This document shows positions 13,972-22,855 of a stretch of 64,000 nucleotides of DNA, piece after piece; the stretch's first letter is position 1, and each line of letters starts with the position of its first letter. The stretch spans positions 1-64,000 of the forward strand of contig CANKII010000007.1 of assembly GCA_947482115.1 (NCBI GenBank). The letters are read 5' to 3'. The notes below the pieces were generated by a model. It was not told the origin of the DNA and did no database searches. It saw only the letters and a program-made list of their open reading frames with translations. This DNA is from Fibrobacterota bacterium. GTDB lineage: Bacteria > Fibrobacterota > Fibrobacteria > UBA11236. The translations under genes were made by a program, and so were the position numbers.

Positions 13972-15915
13972 ATGCGTTTTCCCGGGGAACAGTTGCGTTT
14001 TTGGATCCACAGGCATACCCATGGTACATGGTTTGTATGTCTTGCAGTTTTGCTCCTTTCCGCTTGTTTTTTCTGGAGTTGCTCTCCTCTTCCTGCCGGT
14101 TCACCCGCTCCCACTCCCGTTCTACTGATTGACAGCATACCGGCTGCGTGGAATGATGAACCGGTGGTCGTGCTGGCCGACAGCATCACGACTGAATTCG
14201 GGCCCGGAAAATCAGAATCCAAAAACGAAGTCGTTACGACGCACGTCACCTGGTATTACGTGCAACACGACGATCCACCCTTGTTGCAACAACTGGCCGT
14301 TAATGATATCGAAGAGTATGAATCCGAGCCGGTGGTTTCCGCCACCTTGTGGCGCAAACAGGGTACGGGTTGGGAACGGGATAACTCCACGTATTTTCAA
14401 AAGCGATCTTTTGAGAAAGAGGCTTCCTACATCACCAACCATTATGTGTTCATGGCCGATGTTCGCGGATATCAGGCGGGCATGGTCATTCGCATGGAAG
14501 AGAAACACCGGATTTTCCGGCCGGAATTTCTGAAGGGTGACGTGCTTCGTGGGCAATATCCCATCATTCACAAGTACGTCGGTTTTGAGGCTCCCAAGGA
14601 GTATGACCTCAAGGTTGATTTTCACAATGCGGAAAGGGTGCATTGCTTTAACTCCTTTCGCAGGAATTCCATGGGATCCACCGCCTGGATTAAGGCGTGG
14701 CAGCTCCCCAAAATCCGGCTTGTGCGTCCCATTCCCCAACCTGAAACATGGTTTGCCGGTGTGAATTACAGCCTTCCTGCGGAAGGATTGCATTCACAAA
14801 CCTGGGCTGAATTGGGAGACCATTATCTCTCGATGGCGGATCCGTATCTTCAGCGGGAGGCCTCGCTGGCTCCCGTTGCCAAGGACATCGCGCCACCCGA
14901 TGCCGCTCCCGGTGAAATTGTCGAGAAGACATTTGAGTACCTGCAAAAACATTTTCGTTATCATGCGGACGAAGTGGGGATACACGCTTTTGTTCCCAGA
15001 CCGATTTCATATGTCCTGCAGCAGGGGTGGGGGGATTGCAAGGAACTCAGCTCTCTTTTCAGCGCCATTCTACGGGAACGAGGTATTGAAACGCGTCTGG
15101 CTTTGATCACCACCGCGCACCTGTTTCAACCCCTTCCTGAAACACCCTCGCTCGGGGGATTCAATCACGTGATTTGCTGCTGGAAGGACGGGACTGTGTG
15201 GCGTTGGGTGGACGCAACATTCAATTATGGAGACGCTGCATCCTCCAGTTTTCAACTGGTCGGTCAAAGGGCTTTGTTGCTGGAGAAAGGACAAAGCCGG
15301 CTGATGGAGATCGGCGCGGATCCCTCATGGAAGAATACCATTGAAACGCATTCAAGCATCACCAAAGAGAATGCGTCGTGGTGGTTGCATACGGAGATTG
15401 TTTTACAAGGGGAGTCGGCCCATGAATTATACCCCTATCTGCGCCAGGTCAATGGCGAGGAGCAGGGCCCGTTTCTGCGTAAATGGCTCGAAGACGCTTT
15501 CGGGTTCACTTCTCCCCAGGCTTCCTTACGCACACTGGACTGGAAGCGCATTGAATTCGATGTTCGTGAACCCTATGACCGCGGATATCTGGCGCTGGAC
15601 AAGGGCGGAGTGATTCTGGAAGAGCCCCTGCTTTGGTATAGTGCGGGGCAATACACGTCCCTGCGTCTGGAGGGGCCGCGGGAATTCAGGGCTTTTGAGC
15701 AGCGGGATACGTGGGAAATTCCTGACGAATTCTCCGACTTCGATGGCAAAGGATGGGGGCGCTCCTTTTGCTCCGGAGAATGGCACAAGACTGGAAACCA
15801 TATAGAGCGCACCTATACCCAAAAACGCCGCATGTTTAACGCGGCGGACTCCATGGAGTTTCGCGGTATTCATTCCGAACGCAAACAATTCATGAGGAAA
15901 ACTGTATGGCATTGA
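13972..15915 (+). CDS. DUF3857 lipoprotein with intact transglutaminase-like domain
   Basis: A 647-residue membrane-anchored protein. The N-terminal hydrophobic segment ends in cysteines (LLSACFFWSC), so a lipoprotein or a single anchor is likely. A DUF3857 beta-rich domain spans about 60-270 and a transglutaminase-like cysteine-protease fold about 310-430. The catalytic triad is present: Cys356 in GWGDCKE, His399 in FNHV and Asp414 in VDATF. Such proteins are common in Bacteroidota but their substrates are not known. The stop overlaps the start of a second DUF3857 gene by 10 bp, so the two are translationally coupled and may act as a pair. Confidence 0.85.
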   Translation: MRFPGEQLRFWIHRHTHGTWFVCLAVLLLSACFFWSCSPLPAGSPAPTPVLLIDSIPAAWNDEPVVVLADSITTEFGPGKSESKNEVVTTHVTWYYVQHDDPPLLQQLAVNDIEEYESEPVVSATLWRKQGTGWERDNSTYFQKRSFEKEASYITNHYVFMADVRGYQAGMVIRMEEKHRIFRPEFLKGDVLRGQYPIIHKYVGFEAPKEYDLKVDFHNAERVHCFNSFRRNSMGSTAWIKAWQLPKIRLVRPIPQPETWFAGVNYSLPAEGLHSQTWAELGDHYLSMADPYLQREASLAPVAKDIAPPDAAPGEIVEKTFEYLQKHFRYHADEVGIHAFVPRPISYVLQQGWGDCKELSSLFSAILRERGIETRLALITTAHLFQPLPETPSLGGFNHVICCWKDGTVWRWVDATFNYGDAASSSFQLVGQRALLLEKGQSRLMEIGADPSWKNTIETHSSITKENASWWLHTEIVLQGESAHELYPYLRQVNGEEQGPFLRKWLEDAFGFTSPQASLRTLDWKRIEFDVREPYDRGYLALDKGGVILEEPLLWYSAGQYTSLRLEGPREFRAFEQRDTWEIPDEFSDFDGKGWGRSFCSGEWHKTGNHIERTYTQKRRMFNAADSMEFRGIHSERKQFMRKTVWH

Positions 15916-17804
15916 TCCCTTTCCAGGCGTTTTTTCGTCGTACCCGATTGTGGCTTCTCGCTTCTCTTATGCTGGCGGGATGCGCCCCCTCAACGCAATA
16001 TATCGCCCCTGCACGTGAGTCGGTGGCCAATGAAAGCGCACTGGATCAGCGTTATGCCAAATATGGCGCTTACTACCTCGTTGCAGAAACACGGATGGAA
16101 TTTTCGGATCAGATGGTCACTTTGGCCGGTGGCAATTCATCCCGGGGAGAGGTGGTTGTTTTCAAGCGTTTGAAAGTGCTGAATTCTGAAAGCTCGGAAT
16201 ATGGAACGATCAAGATCGATTCTTATTCGGATTATATCAGTCTTTTCAAAGTCAGCCTGTCCACGCCGGAAGGGGGAACCTCGGAACTCGAGGTTGAAAA
16301 ACTCCAGGCGGAATATGTGAAAACCGGAAAAATAGCCGTACCGCATGTCAAGGCAGGTACGGTTGTCACCATTGAAATTCATTTTAGCACCGGAAGAGTT
16401 CTGCCATTCTTTGAGGTGTGGATGTCGGGGAACCTTCCTGTGGCCCATTCCATTTTCACCCTGTCCACACTGGGCTCTTATACGTTCGATGCGAAGGAAT
16501 ACAGCGGTTTGGGAAAACCCCGCATCGATACGGTTAAAAATGGGCTGTCCACGTTTCTGGTGCGGAACTGGAGCATGGACGGCGTGCTTCCCAGAAGTCG
16601 CGTGGGCATGAAGGCTTCCATGGATCGCTCCGAGCCAAGGGTTTCCGCCGTACTCCGCCATTATGGATGGCAGGATATTTTCACGGACTGGAAAAAACTT
16701 TCGGAGAGTTATCAAAAGGAACTTCTGAAAAAATCCGTCTTCGCAGGGGATGGCAGGGTGAAAAAACTTGCGGACAGCCTGGCGGGGGCTTTTGGAAATG
16801 CAAAGTATGACTCTGCATTTGCATGGGTACAGCGGAATCTGCGAATCAAGCGCCATCCCTTGGGACCCATTTTTCCGAACGATGTGATTGATTCCAGAGA
16901 GGGCAATGTTTGGGAAATCGCCGTGGTACTGCGTGACGTGCTGGAAGCCATGGGGGCCCGGTGCGACATCGTTGTGACACGTCCCAGATTCATGGGCGGG
17001 TTTGACTCCTCTTTTATCACGCCGTCGGTACTTGCGCTTCCCTTGGTGATTGTGATGGAGCCCGGCCCAAAGCGCGTTGCTTATCCATTTGGGAAAGGAG
17101 CGGCTCTCGGGGAGTATTCGACTGAATACTTCGGACTCGAGGCTCTTTCAATGAATACGCTGGACATCCAATCCCTTCCGCCGTCAACATCGCCGTCTTC
17201 AAACAGCTATTACCGTTTCACTTTGCATACGGCGGATCCGAACGGCCGCGCCGAATTGTCGCTGGATTGGCAGGGTTACTGGGCGTATTATTTTCGCAGC
17301 ACGCTTTCAACGCTCAAACACGACGAGGTAGGCGAAGTTTTTCAACGGTTTCTCGGCGGGATTTCCAAGGCCAATGTCCTGGACAGTTTTCAAGTGGAAG
17401 GAATTCAAATACCGGGAAGTCCTCTTTCAGCCCACGTGTATTTCCACAACAGTGAAGCCATGATTGAACATAAAGGTGAAAAGTTGCTGCGACTGGATCA
17501 CGTGTTCGATCGCTACTTCACAACATGGGACAGTTCCCGCATTTCGGAAGTTTCCCTCCATGTTCCGGAGACCATTCGCGAGGAGGTAATCGTGGATGGA
17601 GATGCTCCTGTCCGCATTGATTTCACCTGTCGCGATGTGAGCACGGAGGTTTTCATTCAGACCTGTTCGCAGGAAGGTGTTTCCAGCCTGCGCCGCAAAC
17701 TGCAGGTCAAGTCAGGCGATTTTTCACCGGATGTGGCAAGAAGGCTTTTACCCGAAATCGAAAAACTGAACGAAATAAGAAACAGTTCGATGGTGGTAAA
17801 ATAA
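15906..17804 (+). CDS. DUF3857 lipoprotein with degenerate transglutaminase-like domain
   Basis: A 632-residue lipoprotein with lipobox LMLAGC near residue 24. It has the same overall plan as the preceding gene: a DUF3857 domain (about 60-270) and a transglutaminase-like region near 290-380. Where the family has GDCK, this protein reads EGNVWEIAVVLRDVLEAMG, so the nucleophilic cysteine is gone, and no matching His and Asp motifs follow. It is therefore predicted to be non-catalytic. Its gene overlaps the catalytic-looking paralogue by 10 bp, suggesting a regulatory or structural partner. This pairing idea is inference. Confidence 0.83.
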   Translation: MALIPFQAFFRRTRLWLLASLMLAGCAPSTQYIAPARESVANESALDQRYAKYGAYYLVAETRMEFSDQMVTLAGGNSSRGEVVVFKRLKVLNSESSEYGTIKIDSYSDYISLFKVSLSTPEGGTSELEVEKLQAEYVKTGKIAVPHVKAGTVVTIEIHFSTGRVLPFFEVWMSGNLPVAHSIFTLSTLGSYTFDAKEYSGLGKPRIDTVKNGLSTFLVRNWSMDGVLPRSRVGMKASMDRSEPRVSAVLRHYGWQDIFTDWKKLSESYQKELLKKSVFAGDGRVKKLADSLAGAFGNAKYDSAFAWVQRNLRIKRHPLGPIFPNDVIDSREGNVWEIAVVLRDVLEAMGARCDIVVTRPRFMGGFDSSFITPSVLALPLVIVMEPGPKRVAYPFGKGAALGEYSTEYFGLEALSMNTLDIQSLPPSTSPSSNSYYRFTLHTADPNGRAELSLDWQGYWAYYFRSTLSTLKHDEVGEVFQRFLGGISKANVLDSFQVEGIQIPGSPLSAHVYFHNSEAMIEHKGEKLLRLDHVFDRYFTTWDSSRISEVSLHVPETIREEVIVDGDAPVRIDFTCRDVSTEVFIQTCSQEGVSSLRRKLQVKSGDFSPDVARRLLPEIEKLNEIRNSSMVVK

Positions 17805-19343: not shown

Positions 19344-19940
19344 ATGTACATCCCAAGCGTCATTGAAACCACCGGCCGTTCCGAACGGGTTTACGACATT
19401 TACTCGCGCCTTCTCAAGGAGCGCATCATTTTTCTCGGCTACGAGATCAATGATGTCGTGGCCAACACCATTGTCGCGCAAATGCTTTTTCTGCAATACG
19501 AGGATCCGGAAAAGGATATTCAGATTTACATCAACTCACCCGGCGGTTTGGTCACGGCGGGACTTGCGATTTACGATGTGATCAAATTTGTGAAGCCCGA
19601 TGTGCAAACCATTTGCGTGGGCTCGGCATACAGCATGGGTGCGTTGTTGCTCGCGGCGGGGACCAAGGGCAAGCGGTACATTCTGCCTCACGGCAAGGTC
19701 ATGTTGCACCAACCCAGCGGCGGCGCGGGCGGGCAATCCAGTGACATCCAGATTCACGCGAAAGAGATCGTCAAGACCAAGCTGGAGTTGAACAAGATCC
19801 TCGCCGAATGCACAGGCAAAACCATTGAGCAAATTGACAAGGATACGGACCGCGATCTTTACATGAATGCCGAGGACGCTTTGGCCTATGGCGTGGTGGA
19901 TCAAATTTTCCAGCCGGGCACCCGCGAGAAAAAGGCCTAG
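19344..19940 (+). CDS. clpP: ATP-dependent Clp protease proteolytic subunit
   Basis: A 198-residue serine protease subunit that forms the tetradecameric ClpP barrel. The catalytic residues are Ser97 (SAYSMGA), His122 (MLHQPSGG) and Asp171 (DTDRDLYM), with the same numbers as mature E. coli ClpP. The start at 19344 ([15 protein letters not shown]) has GAGG 7 nt upstream; an upstream ATG at 19290 lacks one. clpX begins 4 nt after the stop, so the two are co-translated. Confidence 0.97.
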
Positions 19941-19944
19941 TCCC

Positions 19945-21198
19945 ATGAACCGTCCCGCAGGTTCCGGTTCGCCGCGCTGTTCTTTTTGCGGCAAGAATGC
20001 GGAGCAGGTTAAGAAGTTGATCACCGGGCCTTCGGTTCACATTTGCAATGAGTGTGTTGCGATGTGTACCGAGATTCTGACGGATGTGGATCGCAAGGTT
20101 GCCGAGTCCGTTGCCCCCGTCGTGCTTCCGGTTCCCGTCGAAATCAAAAATCATCTCGACGATTATGTCATTGGACAGGATTCCGCCAAAACGGCTTTGG
20201 CCGTAGCGGTGTACAACCATTACAAGCGCATTGCCCAAGCCAAAACCTCCGATGGAGTGGAGATTGAAAAATCCAATGTGATGTTTCTTGGGCCCACCGG
20301 ATCGGGAAAAACGCTGCTGGCACAAACCATCGCCAAGTTTCTGAAAGTTCCCTTCACCATCGTGGATGCGACCATTCTTACCGAAGCGGGCTATGTGGGC
20401 GAGGATGTGGAAAACATCATCGTGCGTTTGTTGCAGGCTGCGGACTATGATGTGGAGCAGGCGGAAAAGGGAATCGTTTATGTGGACGAGGTGGACAAAA
20501 TTTCCCGCAAGAGCGCGAATCCTTCCATCACCCGCGACGTGTCCGGTGAAGGGGTGCAACAGGGATTGTTGAAACTGCTGGAGGGAACGCTCGCAGCCGT
20601 GCCGCCGAAGGGTGGACGCAAGCATCCCGAGCAAAACCTCATCCAGATCAACACCCGCAACATTCTTTTCATTTGCGGCGGCGCTTTCGAGGGGCTTGAT
20701 AAAATTGTGGAGCGCCGCACGCGCGAAAGCGGTATCGGATTCACGGCATCCATCCTGTCCAAAAAGGATCGCGACTCCGGAATTATTCTGCGTCAGAGCG
20801 AGCCCGATGATTTGATCCAGTTCGGCCTCATTCCCGAACTCGTGGGTCGTGTGCCTGTGTTGGCGGTATTGGATGAATTGTCCCGTGACGCCATGCTGCG
20901 CATTCTTACCGAGCCGCGCAATGCATTGACGAAACAATACGCCAAGCTGTTCGAGATGGACGGGATTGTTCTCAAGTTTCAACCGGAAGCATTGGATGCG
21001 GTTGTGGAGCTTGCCCTGAAGCGTAAAACGGGTGCGCGCGGTTTGCGCGCGGTGCTGGAAAACATCCTGCAGCCCTTCATGTACAGCATGCCTTCTCGCG
21101 GTGATGTTTCTGAATGCCTGATCACTCGTGACACGGTGGAACGCGGTACAGAGCCATTGTTGGTGCTGAAGAAAGTTGCGAAGAAGAAAACAGCATAA
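19945..21198 (+). CDS. clpX: ATP-dependent Clp protease ATP-binding subunit ClpX
   Basis: A 417-residue AAA+ unfoldase. The N-terminal zinc finger uses Cys12, Cys15, Cys34 and Cys37 (CSFC...CNEC). Walker A is GPTGSGKT at 116-123 and the Walker B region reads [11 protein letters not shown]. The arginine-finger/sensor 2 area includes [10 protein letters not shown]. It unfolds substrates and feeds them to ClpP, encoded 4 nt upstream. The start at 19945 uses the purine-rich end of clpP (GAGAAAAAGG) as its ribosome site. Confidence 0.97.
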
Positions 21199-21227: not shown

Positions 21228-22322
21228 ATGAAATCTCGAAACCTTCTACAGGTTTGTTTTCTGTTTGTTTTTATTTCCACCCTTCATGCCCAGACTTGGA
21301 CAGCCTTGACGAGTGGAACTACTGCCAACCTGTACGGAGTTTATTTTACCGATGCCAATACGGGCTATGCGGTGGGGGGTGGTATTTACAAAACCACCAA
21401 CGGAGGCACATCGTGGGCGTCCTTGAATGTGACTGCGTTTACGGGTGCGACTTTTCAGGCGGTGCAGTTTTCCAGCGCAACGGTGGGGTACGTCGTGGGA
21501 AGAAACAATTCGGGTGGCCTCATCATTAAGACCACGGATGCGGGCGTCACTTGGACGGCGCATACGGCTGGAACCCTCCAATCGCTTCGTGCAGTTTATT
21601 ATCTGAATCCCAATCACCAATATGCTTCGGGAACGGGAGGGGCTATCGTTGAATCCAATGGTGGGTCCACTTGGACAGCTCAAACAACGGGGGTGTCCCT
21701 GGTATTGAGCGGGATTTATTTCTCGGACTTCAATCATGGTTGTGCGGTGGGAAGTTTGAATACTCTCATCAAAACATCGAATGCCGGAACGACTTGGACG
21801 GCAGCCACGACTCCCTCGGGGCCCGCTAGAAGTTGGAATGCCGTGGCCTTTGGAAGCGGTTCAACGGGTTATGCCGTGGGTTCGGCGGGAGCCATTATCA
21901 AAACTATCGACAGTGGTTCCACTTGGACGGCCCAAGCCCCGCCCACTACGACTGAATTGTTCAGCGTATCCTTCGTGGATGTGAACAATGGTTATGCAGT
22001 AGGTACGCCTGTCACCTCCAGTGTGAATGTGCTTCTCAAAACCACCAACGGAGGAGCGACTTGGGTGAACCAAACGGCTCCAACGACTTTGGTGACTTTA
22101 AACGGTGTCTATGCTGTGAATGCCAATCTTGCCTATGTGGTGGGAGATGGCGGTAAAATTTTTAAAACCGGGACGGGCACGCCGATTCTGGTCAAGAATC
22201 GTTTCTCCGGCAAACGGGCAACCGCCGAAAAGCTGTTCGATCTTCGTGGAAGAAATTTATCATTGCAGAACTTATGGCACGGCAAAAAGACAATCCTGGA
22301 ATGGTCACGGCCCTTGCGTTGA
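21228..22322 (+). CDS. Secreted YCF48-like beta-propeller protein
   Basis: A 364-residue exported protein with signal peptide (FVFISTLHAQ). About seven repeats follow, of the form GYAVGGGIYKTTNGGTSW and TTDAGVTWTA, the YCF48/BNR-like blade signature that builds a propeller. It is related in repeat style to the protein at 11774. The tail KLFDLRGRNLSLQNLWHGKK looks like the first half of a T9SS sorting domain that then loses the pattern, and its last 49 bp overlap the next gene in another frame. It sits in the protease cluster, but a link to proteolysis is not shown. Confidence 0.85.
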   Translation: MKSRNLLQVCFLFVFISTLHAQTWTALTSGTTANLYGVYFTDANTGYAVGGGIYKTTNGGTSWASLNVTAFTGATFQAVQFSSATVGYVVGRNNSGGLIIKTTDAGVTWTAHTAGTLQSLRAVYYLNPNHQYASGTGGAIVESNGGSTWTAQTTGVSLVLSGIYFSDFNHGCAVGSLNTLIKTSNAGTTWTAATTPSGPARSWNAVAFGSGSTGYAVGSAGAIIKTIDSGSTWTAQAPPTTTELFSVSFVDVNNGYAVGTPVTSSVNVLLKTTNGGATWVNQTAPTTLVTLNGVYAVNANLAYVVGDGGKIFKTGTGTPILVKNRFSGKRATAEKLFDLRGRNLSLQNLWHGKKTILEWSRPLR

Positions 22323-22855
22323 CTCCTTCGGGTGCGATTACCGCACGTGTTGAATGCCTCTTGCTCTCAGGTCGCGGGCGGCTTATCCTCACCGGAAATT
22401 TGAAGGGTGAGGCCAAGGATTCCGGGCAGGTGGCGTTAAGTCTCGCCATCAGCCGCGCAAAGCGGCTTGGGATCGATCCCGCTGAATTCCAGCGCACCGA
22501 TGTTCATTTTCACATTCCCGGCGCTCCAACTAAAGACGGACCTTCGGCAGGACTGGCCATGCTTGTGGCTTTGGTTTCCGCGATGACCCGCAAGCCTGTG
22601 GATCCCGGAATTGCGTTTACCGGTGAACTTTCATTGTCGGGAAAAATCCTCGGTGTGGGCGGTATTTCGGAAAAAGTCATCGCCGCGCTTCAAGGTGGTG
22701 TGACATCGGTTTATGCCCCGACGGAATCCATTTCCGAAATGAAAAAGCTCCCGAAGAAATCCCAAAAGGGTTTTAAAATGATTCCGGCTGATTCCATTGA
22801 TTCCGTGTTGGATTTGCTCTTTGGAAAACCAAAAAAGTCCCCATCTTCGCGATAA
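22274..22855 (+). CDS. Stand-alone Lon-type serine protease domain
   Basis: A 193-residue protein that is almost entirely a Lon proteolytic (S16) domain. The Ser/Lys dyad is intact: Ser91 in KDGPSAG and Lys134 in GGISEKVIAAL. The 43-residue spacing equals that of E. coli Lon (679/722). No AAA+ module, PDZ domain or membrane segment is present, unlike Lon, LonB or YlbL-type proteins. It may work with a separate ATPase or on unfolded peptides; ClpX is encoded about 1 kb upstream. It overlaps the propeller gene by 49 bp. A start at 22301 (MVTALALTP) is also possible. The function is inferred from the domain only. Confidence 0.85.
   Translation: MARQKDNPGMVTALALTPSGAITARVECLLLSGRGRLILTGNLKGEAKDSGQVALSLAISRAKRLGIDPAEFQRTDVHFHIPGAPTKDGPSAGLAMLVALVSAMTRKPVDPGIAFTGELSLSGKILGVGGISEKVIAALQGGVTSVYAPTESISEMKKLPKKSQKGFKMIPADSIDSVLDLLFGKPKKSPSSR

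What the first reader, a model, noticed from the sequence alone, without database searches (positions are those of the whole stretch)
22274..22855. Free-standing Lon protease domain in a ClpXP neighbourhood
A complete S16 domain with dyad spacing identical to E. coli Lon (43 residues) has no AAA+ partner domain. Placed about 1 kb after clpX and overlapping two neighbours, it might borrow an unfoldase or act as an ATP-independent peptidase.
Basis: partly seen in the sequence, partly recalled or inferred. Interest (0 to 1): 0.52.

Follow-up and report, generated by a model that had tools for sequence, protein, structure and literature searches.

The report
Lon protease stripped of its ATPase
In a small group of bacteria the ATP-driven protease Lon has been cut down to its bare cutting domain, still in the usual lon gene position and with its catalytic residues kept, which suggests a fuel-free version of a machine thought to need its motor.

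Summary
Window 22274-22855 (+) encodes 193 residues, nearly all a LonA-type protease (S16) domain with dyad S91/K134. Its place after clpX is not odd: relatives read clpP-clpX-lon-yggS-divIVA, so this gene sits in the ancestral lon slot. No Lon ATPase or N domain was found elsewhere in the genome; its other Lon_C matches are BrxL and a YifB/ComM protein. Two of three other genomes of the genus (Fibrobacterota) have the same bare domain in the same slot; the third, and 6 of 6 of the sister genus, have full-length Lon. A second family of the class has independently lost Lon's N domain and most of its ATPase. All five ATPase-less proteins keep the dyad and two residues reported to hold the protease ring together. 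All five change W603, L611, M634 and E636, invariant or aromatic in 36 full-length Lons; two of the three bare domains also lack D676, reported to sit at the dyad in the inactive state. Purifying selection is evident. Best reading: a self-assembling, ATP-independent Lon peptidase for peptides or unfolded chains. Borrowing ClpX is unlikely. Activity and assembly are untested. New variant of a known kind.

The parts
22274..22855 (+). lonP: free-standing LonA-type protease (S16) domain, 193 aa
   Evidence: PF05362 174.7 bits; AlphaFold2 pLDDT 86.8, pTM 0.86; Z 27.4 to Y. pestis Lon 6on2 and 27.2 to the E. coli Lon proteolytic domain 3wu6
22544..22546 (+). catalytic Ser91 (E. coli S679)
   Evidence: alignment
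22673..22675 (+). catalytic Lys134 (E. coli K722)
   Evidence: alignment
22403..22423 (+). KGEAKDS stretch, residues 44-50 (E. coli 631-637, LonA G-[DE]-V-M-[KR]-E-S): remodelled in the ATPase-less forms
19344..19940 (+). clpP (start set by comparison with G001)
19945..21198 (+). clpX, with zinc finger and IGF loop; ancestral upstream neighbour of lon
21228..22322 (+). BNR/YCF48-like gene between clpX and lonP; also present in G002, absent in G001
   Evidence: PF14870
22821..23552 (+). yggS (PLP-binding protein), ancestral downstream neighbour of lon; start codon uncertain (22797 or 22821, both TTG)
   Evidence: PF01168
23614..24069 (+). divIVA-like, next conserved neighbour
   Evidence: PF05103

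Best explanation
This is a LonA protease that has lost its N-terminal and AAA+ domains and kept only the proteolytic domain, in the ancestral lon slot of a clpP-clpX-lon-yggS-divIVA cluster (shown). It stands in for Lon in this genome: no other LonA was found (shown). Most likely it assembles through the protease-protease interface into a ring without a motor and cuts peptides, unfolded chains or a dedicated substrate by its Ser-Lys dyad without ATP (inferred). With no ATPase to switch the active site on, residues that full-length Lon holds constant near the active site and loop-docking site have been replaced, and in two of three orthologues the inhibitory aspartate as well; so activation would have to come from ring assembly or substrate binding alone (inferred).
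For: Origin: clpP-clpX-lon order in 14 of 14 fetched loci, yggS next in 12 of 14; full-length Lon in the slot in G003, 6 of 6 genomes of the sister genus, and f3/f5 representatives. Absence of other Lon: PF05362 has 3 matches in the genome, the other two being BrxL and YifB/ComM; G003's Lon N+AAA part (606 aa) has no match in G000 or G002 and one weak 38% match (query 363-440, E 4.6e-4) in G001. Not an assembly artefact: three separate genomes, on contigs of 114, 146 and 204 kb. Selection: dN 0.36, dS 1.82 for G000/G002, other pairs among the three saturated at synonymous sites. All five ATPase-less proteins keep S679, K722, H665, H667, D663, K675, T704, E706, E614 and L709. E614/L709 correspond to MtaLon E613/L708, conserved residues at the protease-domain interface that were charged to make monomers (PMC10643698, passages). 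Isolated P domains form hexamers in crystals (PMC9569914, passages; PDB 5e7s title). [quoted passage not shown] it is Gly in G001 and G002.
Against: No activity or assembly data. D676 is kept in the window's own protein (D88). V633, whose human equivalent V809 is needed for LONP1 proteolysis, is Glu here, and W603, L611, M634, E636 are also changed, so the domain may be inactive or active in another way. It keeps 36 of 45 near-invariant LonA positions and G001 only 32; branches are long. The BsLonBA P domain was a dimer in solution, and YlbL without its membrane segment showed no activity in vitro, so a bare P domain may be weak on its own. The AlphaFold model is a monomer and says nothing on the ring.
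Confidence: 0.62

Rival explanations
1. A dedicated processing peptidase: the bare domain cuts one or a few specific peptides or proteins, as YlbL and SepM do, rather than doing bulk clean-up.
For: AAA-free Lon peptidase YlbL acts on YneA in B. subtilis (PMC6051672, passages); weak NCBIfam match to the SepM family, 23.7 bits against cut-off 200. W603 is changed in all five ATPase-less forms.
Against: No membrane segment is apparent by eye and no PDZ domain was found in P0001; no candidate substrate is known. Neighbours are general proteolysis and housekeeping genes inherited with the slot.
Confidence: 0.17
2. A catalytically dead or scaffold protein: the domain is kept for binding (nucleic acid, partner), as with RadA's Lon-like domain.
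For: W603, V633, M634, E636 changed; accelerated evolution; RadA's Lon-like domain shares the fold (Z 21.9).
Against: Ser and Lys are unchanged in 5 of 5 ATPase-less proteins, with both His (H665, H667), T704 and E706, although other near-invariant sites changed.
Confidence: 0.12
3. It borrows an unfoldase, ClpX or another AAA+ protein, as its motor.
For: It lies in the clpP-clpX cluster.
Against: The cluster is the ancestral lon position and is shared with full-length Lon. ClpX keeps its (I/M)GF loop in G000-G003 and has its own ClpP next door. No intact Lon AAA+ was found for it to dock on in G000, G001 or G002.
Confidence: 0.05
4. A decaying remnant of lon on its way out.
For: Strong reduction and fast evolution.
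Against: Open frame and dyad in three species at saturated or near-saturated synonymous divergence; a simulation of neutral substitution alone leaves the frame open in 1.35% of runs at 0.3 and 0.2% at 0.5 substitutions per site, in one lineage.
Confidence: 0.04

Closest known systems
LonA protease (TIGR00763; PF02190-AAA-PF05362)
   Same: Same proteolytic domain and fold, same gene slot after clpX; clear descent within this family of bacteria
   Different: No N domain, no AAA+ module; 160.4 bits against the model's cut-off of 608.05; W603, L611, V633, M634, E636 changed
MtaLonC / TTC1975 (LonC)
   Same: ATP-independent Lon-type peptidase acting on unfolded substrates (PMC3391209, passages seen)
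   Different: LonC keeps a large N-terminal part with a possible degenerate AAA-like domain and is a separate clade with its own insertions; here the N-terminal part is gone
YlbL and SepM (PDZ-Lon peptidases)
   Same: Lon peptidase domain without AAA+; YlbL needs its catalytic Ser in vivo (PMC6051672, passages seen)
   Different: YlbL is membrane-anchored with a PDZ domain; P0001 has no PDZ match and is far below the SepM model's cut-off
BsLonBA
   Same: No ATPase activity found, slow nucleotide-independent peptidase activity; isolated P domain hexameric in crystals (PMC9569914, passages and section 6 seen)
   Different: Still carries an AAA+ module and a beta-barrel-forming insert in the P domain
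f4 ATPase-degenerate Lon of the same class (G012, G014; this study)
   Same: Same slot, dyad kept, same positions 603, 611, 633, 634, 636 changed
   Different: Keeps a remnant of the AAA module (Walker A-like GPAGSGK and lid); P domain 34-35% identical to P0001

Membership tests
Lon_C / MEROPS S16 peptidase domain | Match to the domain over its curated cut-off | tested here: met
   174.7 bits against 21.1
Lon_C / MEROPS S16 peptidase domain | Ser-Lys dyad with 43-residue spacing | tested here: met
   S91/K134
Lon_C / MEROPS S16 peptidase domain | Lon P-domain fold | tested here: met
   AlphaFold2 model, Z 27.4 to 6on2, 27.2 to 3wu6
LonA protease | LonA-type serine motif KDGPSAG | tested here: met
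   KDGPSAG in the window; KGGPSAG in G002, KGGPSIG in G001
LonA protease | N-terminal LON domain and AAA+ ATPase in the same chain | tested here: not met
LonA protease | Full-length equivalog model TIGR00763 over cut-off | tested here: not met
   160.4 bits against 608.05
LonA protease | ATP-dependent proteolysis | not testable with these tools
   biochemistry needed
LonC | Large N-terminal part with degenerate AAA-like domain | tested here: not met
   193 aa in all, P domain from residue 2
YlbL/SepM (PDZ-Lon) | NF041438 model over cut-off; PDZ domain | tested here: not met
   23.7 bits against 200; no PDZ match in the Pfam scan
BrxL | TIGR02653 over cut-off | tested here: not met
   51.4 bits against 628.25

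The most novel reading that the evidence does not exclude
Lon can work as a motor-free, one-domain proteolytic ring, and evolution has reached ATPase-less Lon at least twice in one bacterial class. In both lineages the same few positions (603, 611, 634, 636, mostly also 633) give way while the dyad and the ring interface stay, which would mark them as the network through which the ATPase switches the protease on; the loss of D676 in two bare forms would then be release of a brake.
Probability: 0.38. Interest if true: 0.66.

Novelty: new variant of a known kind. Interest (0 to 1): 0.52.

Why it matters
Lon is the textbook case of motor and protease in one chain. Natural loss of the motor with the blade kept, in the same gene slot, is a natural domain-deletion experiment. 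The positions that change when the motor goes, and those that do not, give a direct and testable list for how the ATPase activates the protease, and a small protein to test it on.

Tried and rejected
Frameshifted or split Lon: rejected. A full-length Lon elsewhere: rejected; the second and third PF05362 matches are BrxL and YifB/ComM. Chance or assembly artefact: rejected (three genomes). Other short Lon frames in the phylum survey: in G138, G139, G106 and G104 the match runs to or near a contig end; in G150 and G060 the frame is broken but the rest of Lon lies next door; G115, G145, G045 and G162 begin at contig bases 1-40 (not fetched).

Single or repeated origin within the genus: unresolved. 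Two marker sets, clpP+clpX+yggS+divIVA and DnaE, pair G000 with G002 and G001 with full-length G003, and reject a clade of the three bare-domain species (AU p 0.0002 and 0.001). The P-domain tree instead joins the three bare domains at 100/100 and rejects G001+G003 (p 0.0004), also after leaving out G002 or G000 (p 0.009 and 0.004) and after dropping 28 conserved columns (p 0.0009). I first leaned to two independent truncations; the P-domain data speak rather for one truncation followed by exchange at the locus or by paralogue sorting, with shared long branches and convergence as a caveat. I claim two independent losses only for the genus versus family f4. DnaE lies within about 10 kb of lonP in G000-G003, so it is not an unlinked marker there.

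First DnaE tree used wrong reading frames for two genomes and was discarded; one search replaces it. My tig reference was out of frame; the tig rows there are meaningless and tig was not used in any tree. rpoB search: 6 of 10 genomes matched, G003 missing, so not used. A secG search was not used. Viral contigs: 26 pattern matches, no relative. Phage records: 10 matches; the one opened (Moraxella phage Mcat3) is a CDS of 2463 nt, not a bare domain; the other 9 not opened. Plasmids: 80 records matched, lengths not checked. Promoter scan no better than shuffles, 3 against a mean of 3.8. Literature: searches showed no report of a bare cytosolic LonA P domain in Fibrobacterota; this covers open-licence papers only. 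The 2008 survey PMC2605481 lists 39 'Lon_C'-only proteins (passages and section 33) by Pfam of that time; I could not check how many truly lack an ATPase.

Full report
What is there. Window 22274-22855 (+) is a 193-aa ORF whose residues 2-183 match the Lon proteolytic domain (PF05362, 174.7 bits). The match starts at profile position 21, so the cut lies near the boundary between the AAA+ module and the P domain. The dyad is S91/K134, 43 residues apart as in E. coli Lon. An AlphaFold2 model on a 23-sequence alignment has pLDDT 86.8 and pTM 0.86; its best structural matches are Lon from Yersinia pestis (6on2, Z 27.4, rmsd 1.7, 182 aligned) and the E. coli Lon proteolytic domain (3wu6, Z 27.2, rmsd 1.8, 179 aligned).

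No motor found. The genome (2.72 Mb, 15 contigs, 99.4% complete) has three PF05362 matches: this one, a 621-aa BrxL and a 511-aa YifB/ComM-type protein. The N+AAA part of G003's Lon (606 aa) has no match in G000 or G002 and one weak 38% match (query 363-440, E 4.6e-4) in G001; a tblastn over the window and the G001 and G002 loci found only scraps of E >= 0.066.

Why it sits after clpX. In 14 fetched loci of the class clpP-clpX-lon recurs in 14 of 14, counting bare and degenerate forms as lon; yggS follows in 12 of 14 and divIVA is found nearby in 9 of 14, with extra genes between in some. In G003 (same genus) and in all 6 genomes held of the sister genus the lon slot has a full-length Lon; Pfam domains were checked for G003 and G004, the others by open frames of 852 aa or more. 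In G000, G001 and G002 the slot has only the P domain. In G001 only 44 bases separate clpX and lonP, and lonP and yggS overlap by 4 bases, so there is no room for a remnant. In G000 and G002 a BNR/YCF48-like gene lies between clpX and lonP.

How widespread. Of 167 genomes of the phylum searched, 126 are in the same class; 117 of these 126 have a LonA-type P-domain match (8 have none, 1 only a weak match). Bare domains occur in 3 of 117, all in this genus (3 of its 4 genomes). Other short frames in the class are contig ends or broken frames. Two genomes of family f4 (G012, G014) have in the same slot a 456- and a 423-aa ORF in which no Pfam AAA or LON family reaches its cut-off: the N domain is gone, and of the AAA module a Walker A-like GPAGSGK and the lid remain. 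That this part is from Lon is supported by a profile comparison with Lon's AAA (probability 92.5, E 4.7e-7) and by the TIGR00763 match covering profile 482-772 in G014. So ATPase loss occurred at least twice in the class. Of 24 named loci found in genome contigs, two are the bare domains of G001 and G002 and 22 have frames of 768 aa or more.

Is it under selection. G000/G002: dN 0.36, dS 1.82; G000/G001 and G001/G002 are saturated at synonymous sites. A substitution-only neutral simulation keeps the frame open in 1.35% of runs at 0.3 and 0.2% at 0.5 substitutions per site. Against full constraint, the bare domains evolve fast: P-domain end branches are 0.36, 1.87 and 1.15 for G000, G001, G002, plus a shared stem of 1.27, against 0.25 for G003; in the neighbour-gene tree the same four have 0.20, 0.24, 0.10 and 0.10.

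What is kept and what is lost. I aligned the three bare and two f4 domains with 36 P domains of full-length Lon. Of 45 positions conserved in at least 95% of the 36, the bare domains keep 36 (G000), 34 (G002) and 32 (G001), f4 keep 29 and 29, and G003 44 (its P domain is one of the 36). Kept in all five: S679, K722, D663, H665, H667, K675, G677, G681, T704, G705, E706, L709, G711, E614, among others. E614 and L709 correspond to MtaLon E613 and L708, described as conserved residues at the interface between protease domains and changed there to make monomers (PMC10643698, passages; offset of one from the S678/S679 numbering). Changed in all five: W603 (W or Y in 36 of 36) to L or V; L611 (36 of 36) to A; M634 (36 of 36) to A; E636 (36 of 36) to D, I or L. 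V633 (V 27, S 9 of 36) is E in G000 and G002 and Q in f4, while G001's S lies within LonA's own variation. V633 corresponds, by counting back from the catalytic Ser (no alignment to LONP1 was printed), to human V809, which with P854 and E882 of the neighbour holds the active-site loop in the active form; alanine changes there strongly impair LONP1 proteolysis (PMC8163871, passages). P678 and E706 are kept in the three bare domains. [quoted passage not shown]

Reading. The ring interface and dyad are held, while positions that full-length Lon keeps constant have moved at the same sites in two lineages. This fits a peptidase that no longer waits for an ATPase. ATP-independent Lon-type activity has precedents: MtaLonC degrades unfolded substrates without ATP (PMC3391209, passages); BsLonBA has nucleotide-independent peptidase activity (PMC9569914, section 6); YlbL needs its catalytic Ser in vivo without any AAA+ domain (PMC6051672, passages). 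Results against: V633E and W603L could equally mean an inactive or differently activated enzyme; purified YlbL without its membrane segment was inactive in vitro; D676 is kept in the window protein. No experiment here shows activity or assembly.

Origin within the genus is not settled. Neighbour genes and DnaE put G001 with G003, the P domain puts the three bare forms together; each rejects the other by AU test. One truncation followed by exchange at the locus, sorting of an ancestral duplicate, or repeated truncation with convergence are all open; G003 is only 87% complete.

Verdict. A real, conserved, motor-less LonA derivative. It is not a LonA by the family's own test (no AAA+, TIGR00763 cut-off not reached), but its peptidase domain is LonA's by descent. 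I rate it a new variant of a known kind.

Noticed in passing
L075:4205-5575 (G012) and L076:7042-8313 (G014): Family f4 of the class has, in the lon slot, a Lon whose N domain is gone and whose AAA module is reduced to a Walker A-like motif and the lid, with the Ser-Lys dyad kept.
   Followed up: partly
phylum survey: The 41 searched Fibrobacterota genomes outside this class show no strong LonA P-domain match (best E 2.9e-18, the next 4.8e-10), so LonA may be missing from the rest of the phylum.
   Followed up: no
window 21228-22322: A BNR/YCF48-like gene, with a signal-peptide-like start by eye, lies between clpX and lonP in G000 and G002 but not in G001 or G003; its last 49 bases overlap lonP.
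   Followed up: partly
G000:C2:486075-489482 (L002): The genome carries a BrxL (BREX system Lon-like protein), read as 621 aa from the fetched piece.
   Followed up: partly
L065:5275-8217 and L066:6887-8884: G002 and G003, which are not sisters in the marker trees, share a gene of similar N-terminal sequence between lonP/lon and yggS; G000 and G001 lack it.
   Followed up: no
window 13972-17804: Two overlapping large ORFs (647 and 632 aa) with lipoprotein-like starts by eye stand upstream of tig; not searched.
   Followed up: no
L075 and L076, clpX: In family f4 the ClpX (I/M)GF loop reads LGL, while G000-G003 have IGF or MGF.
   Followed up: no
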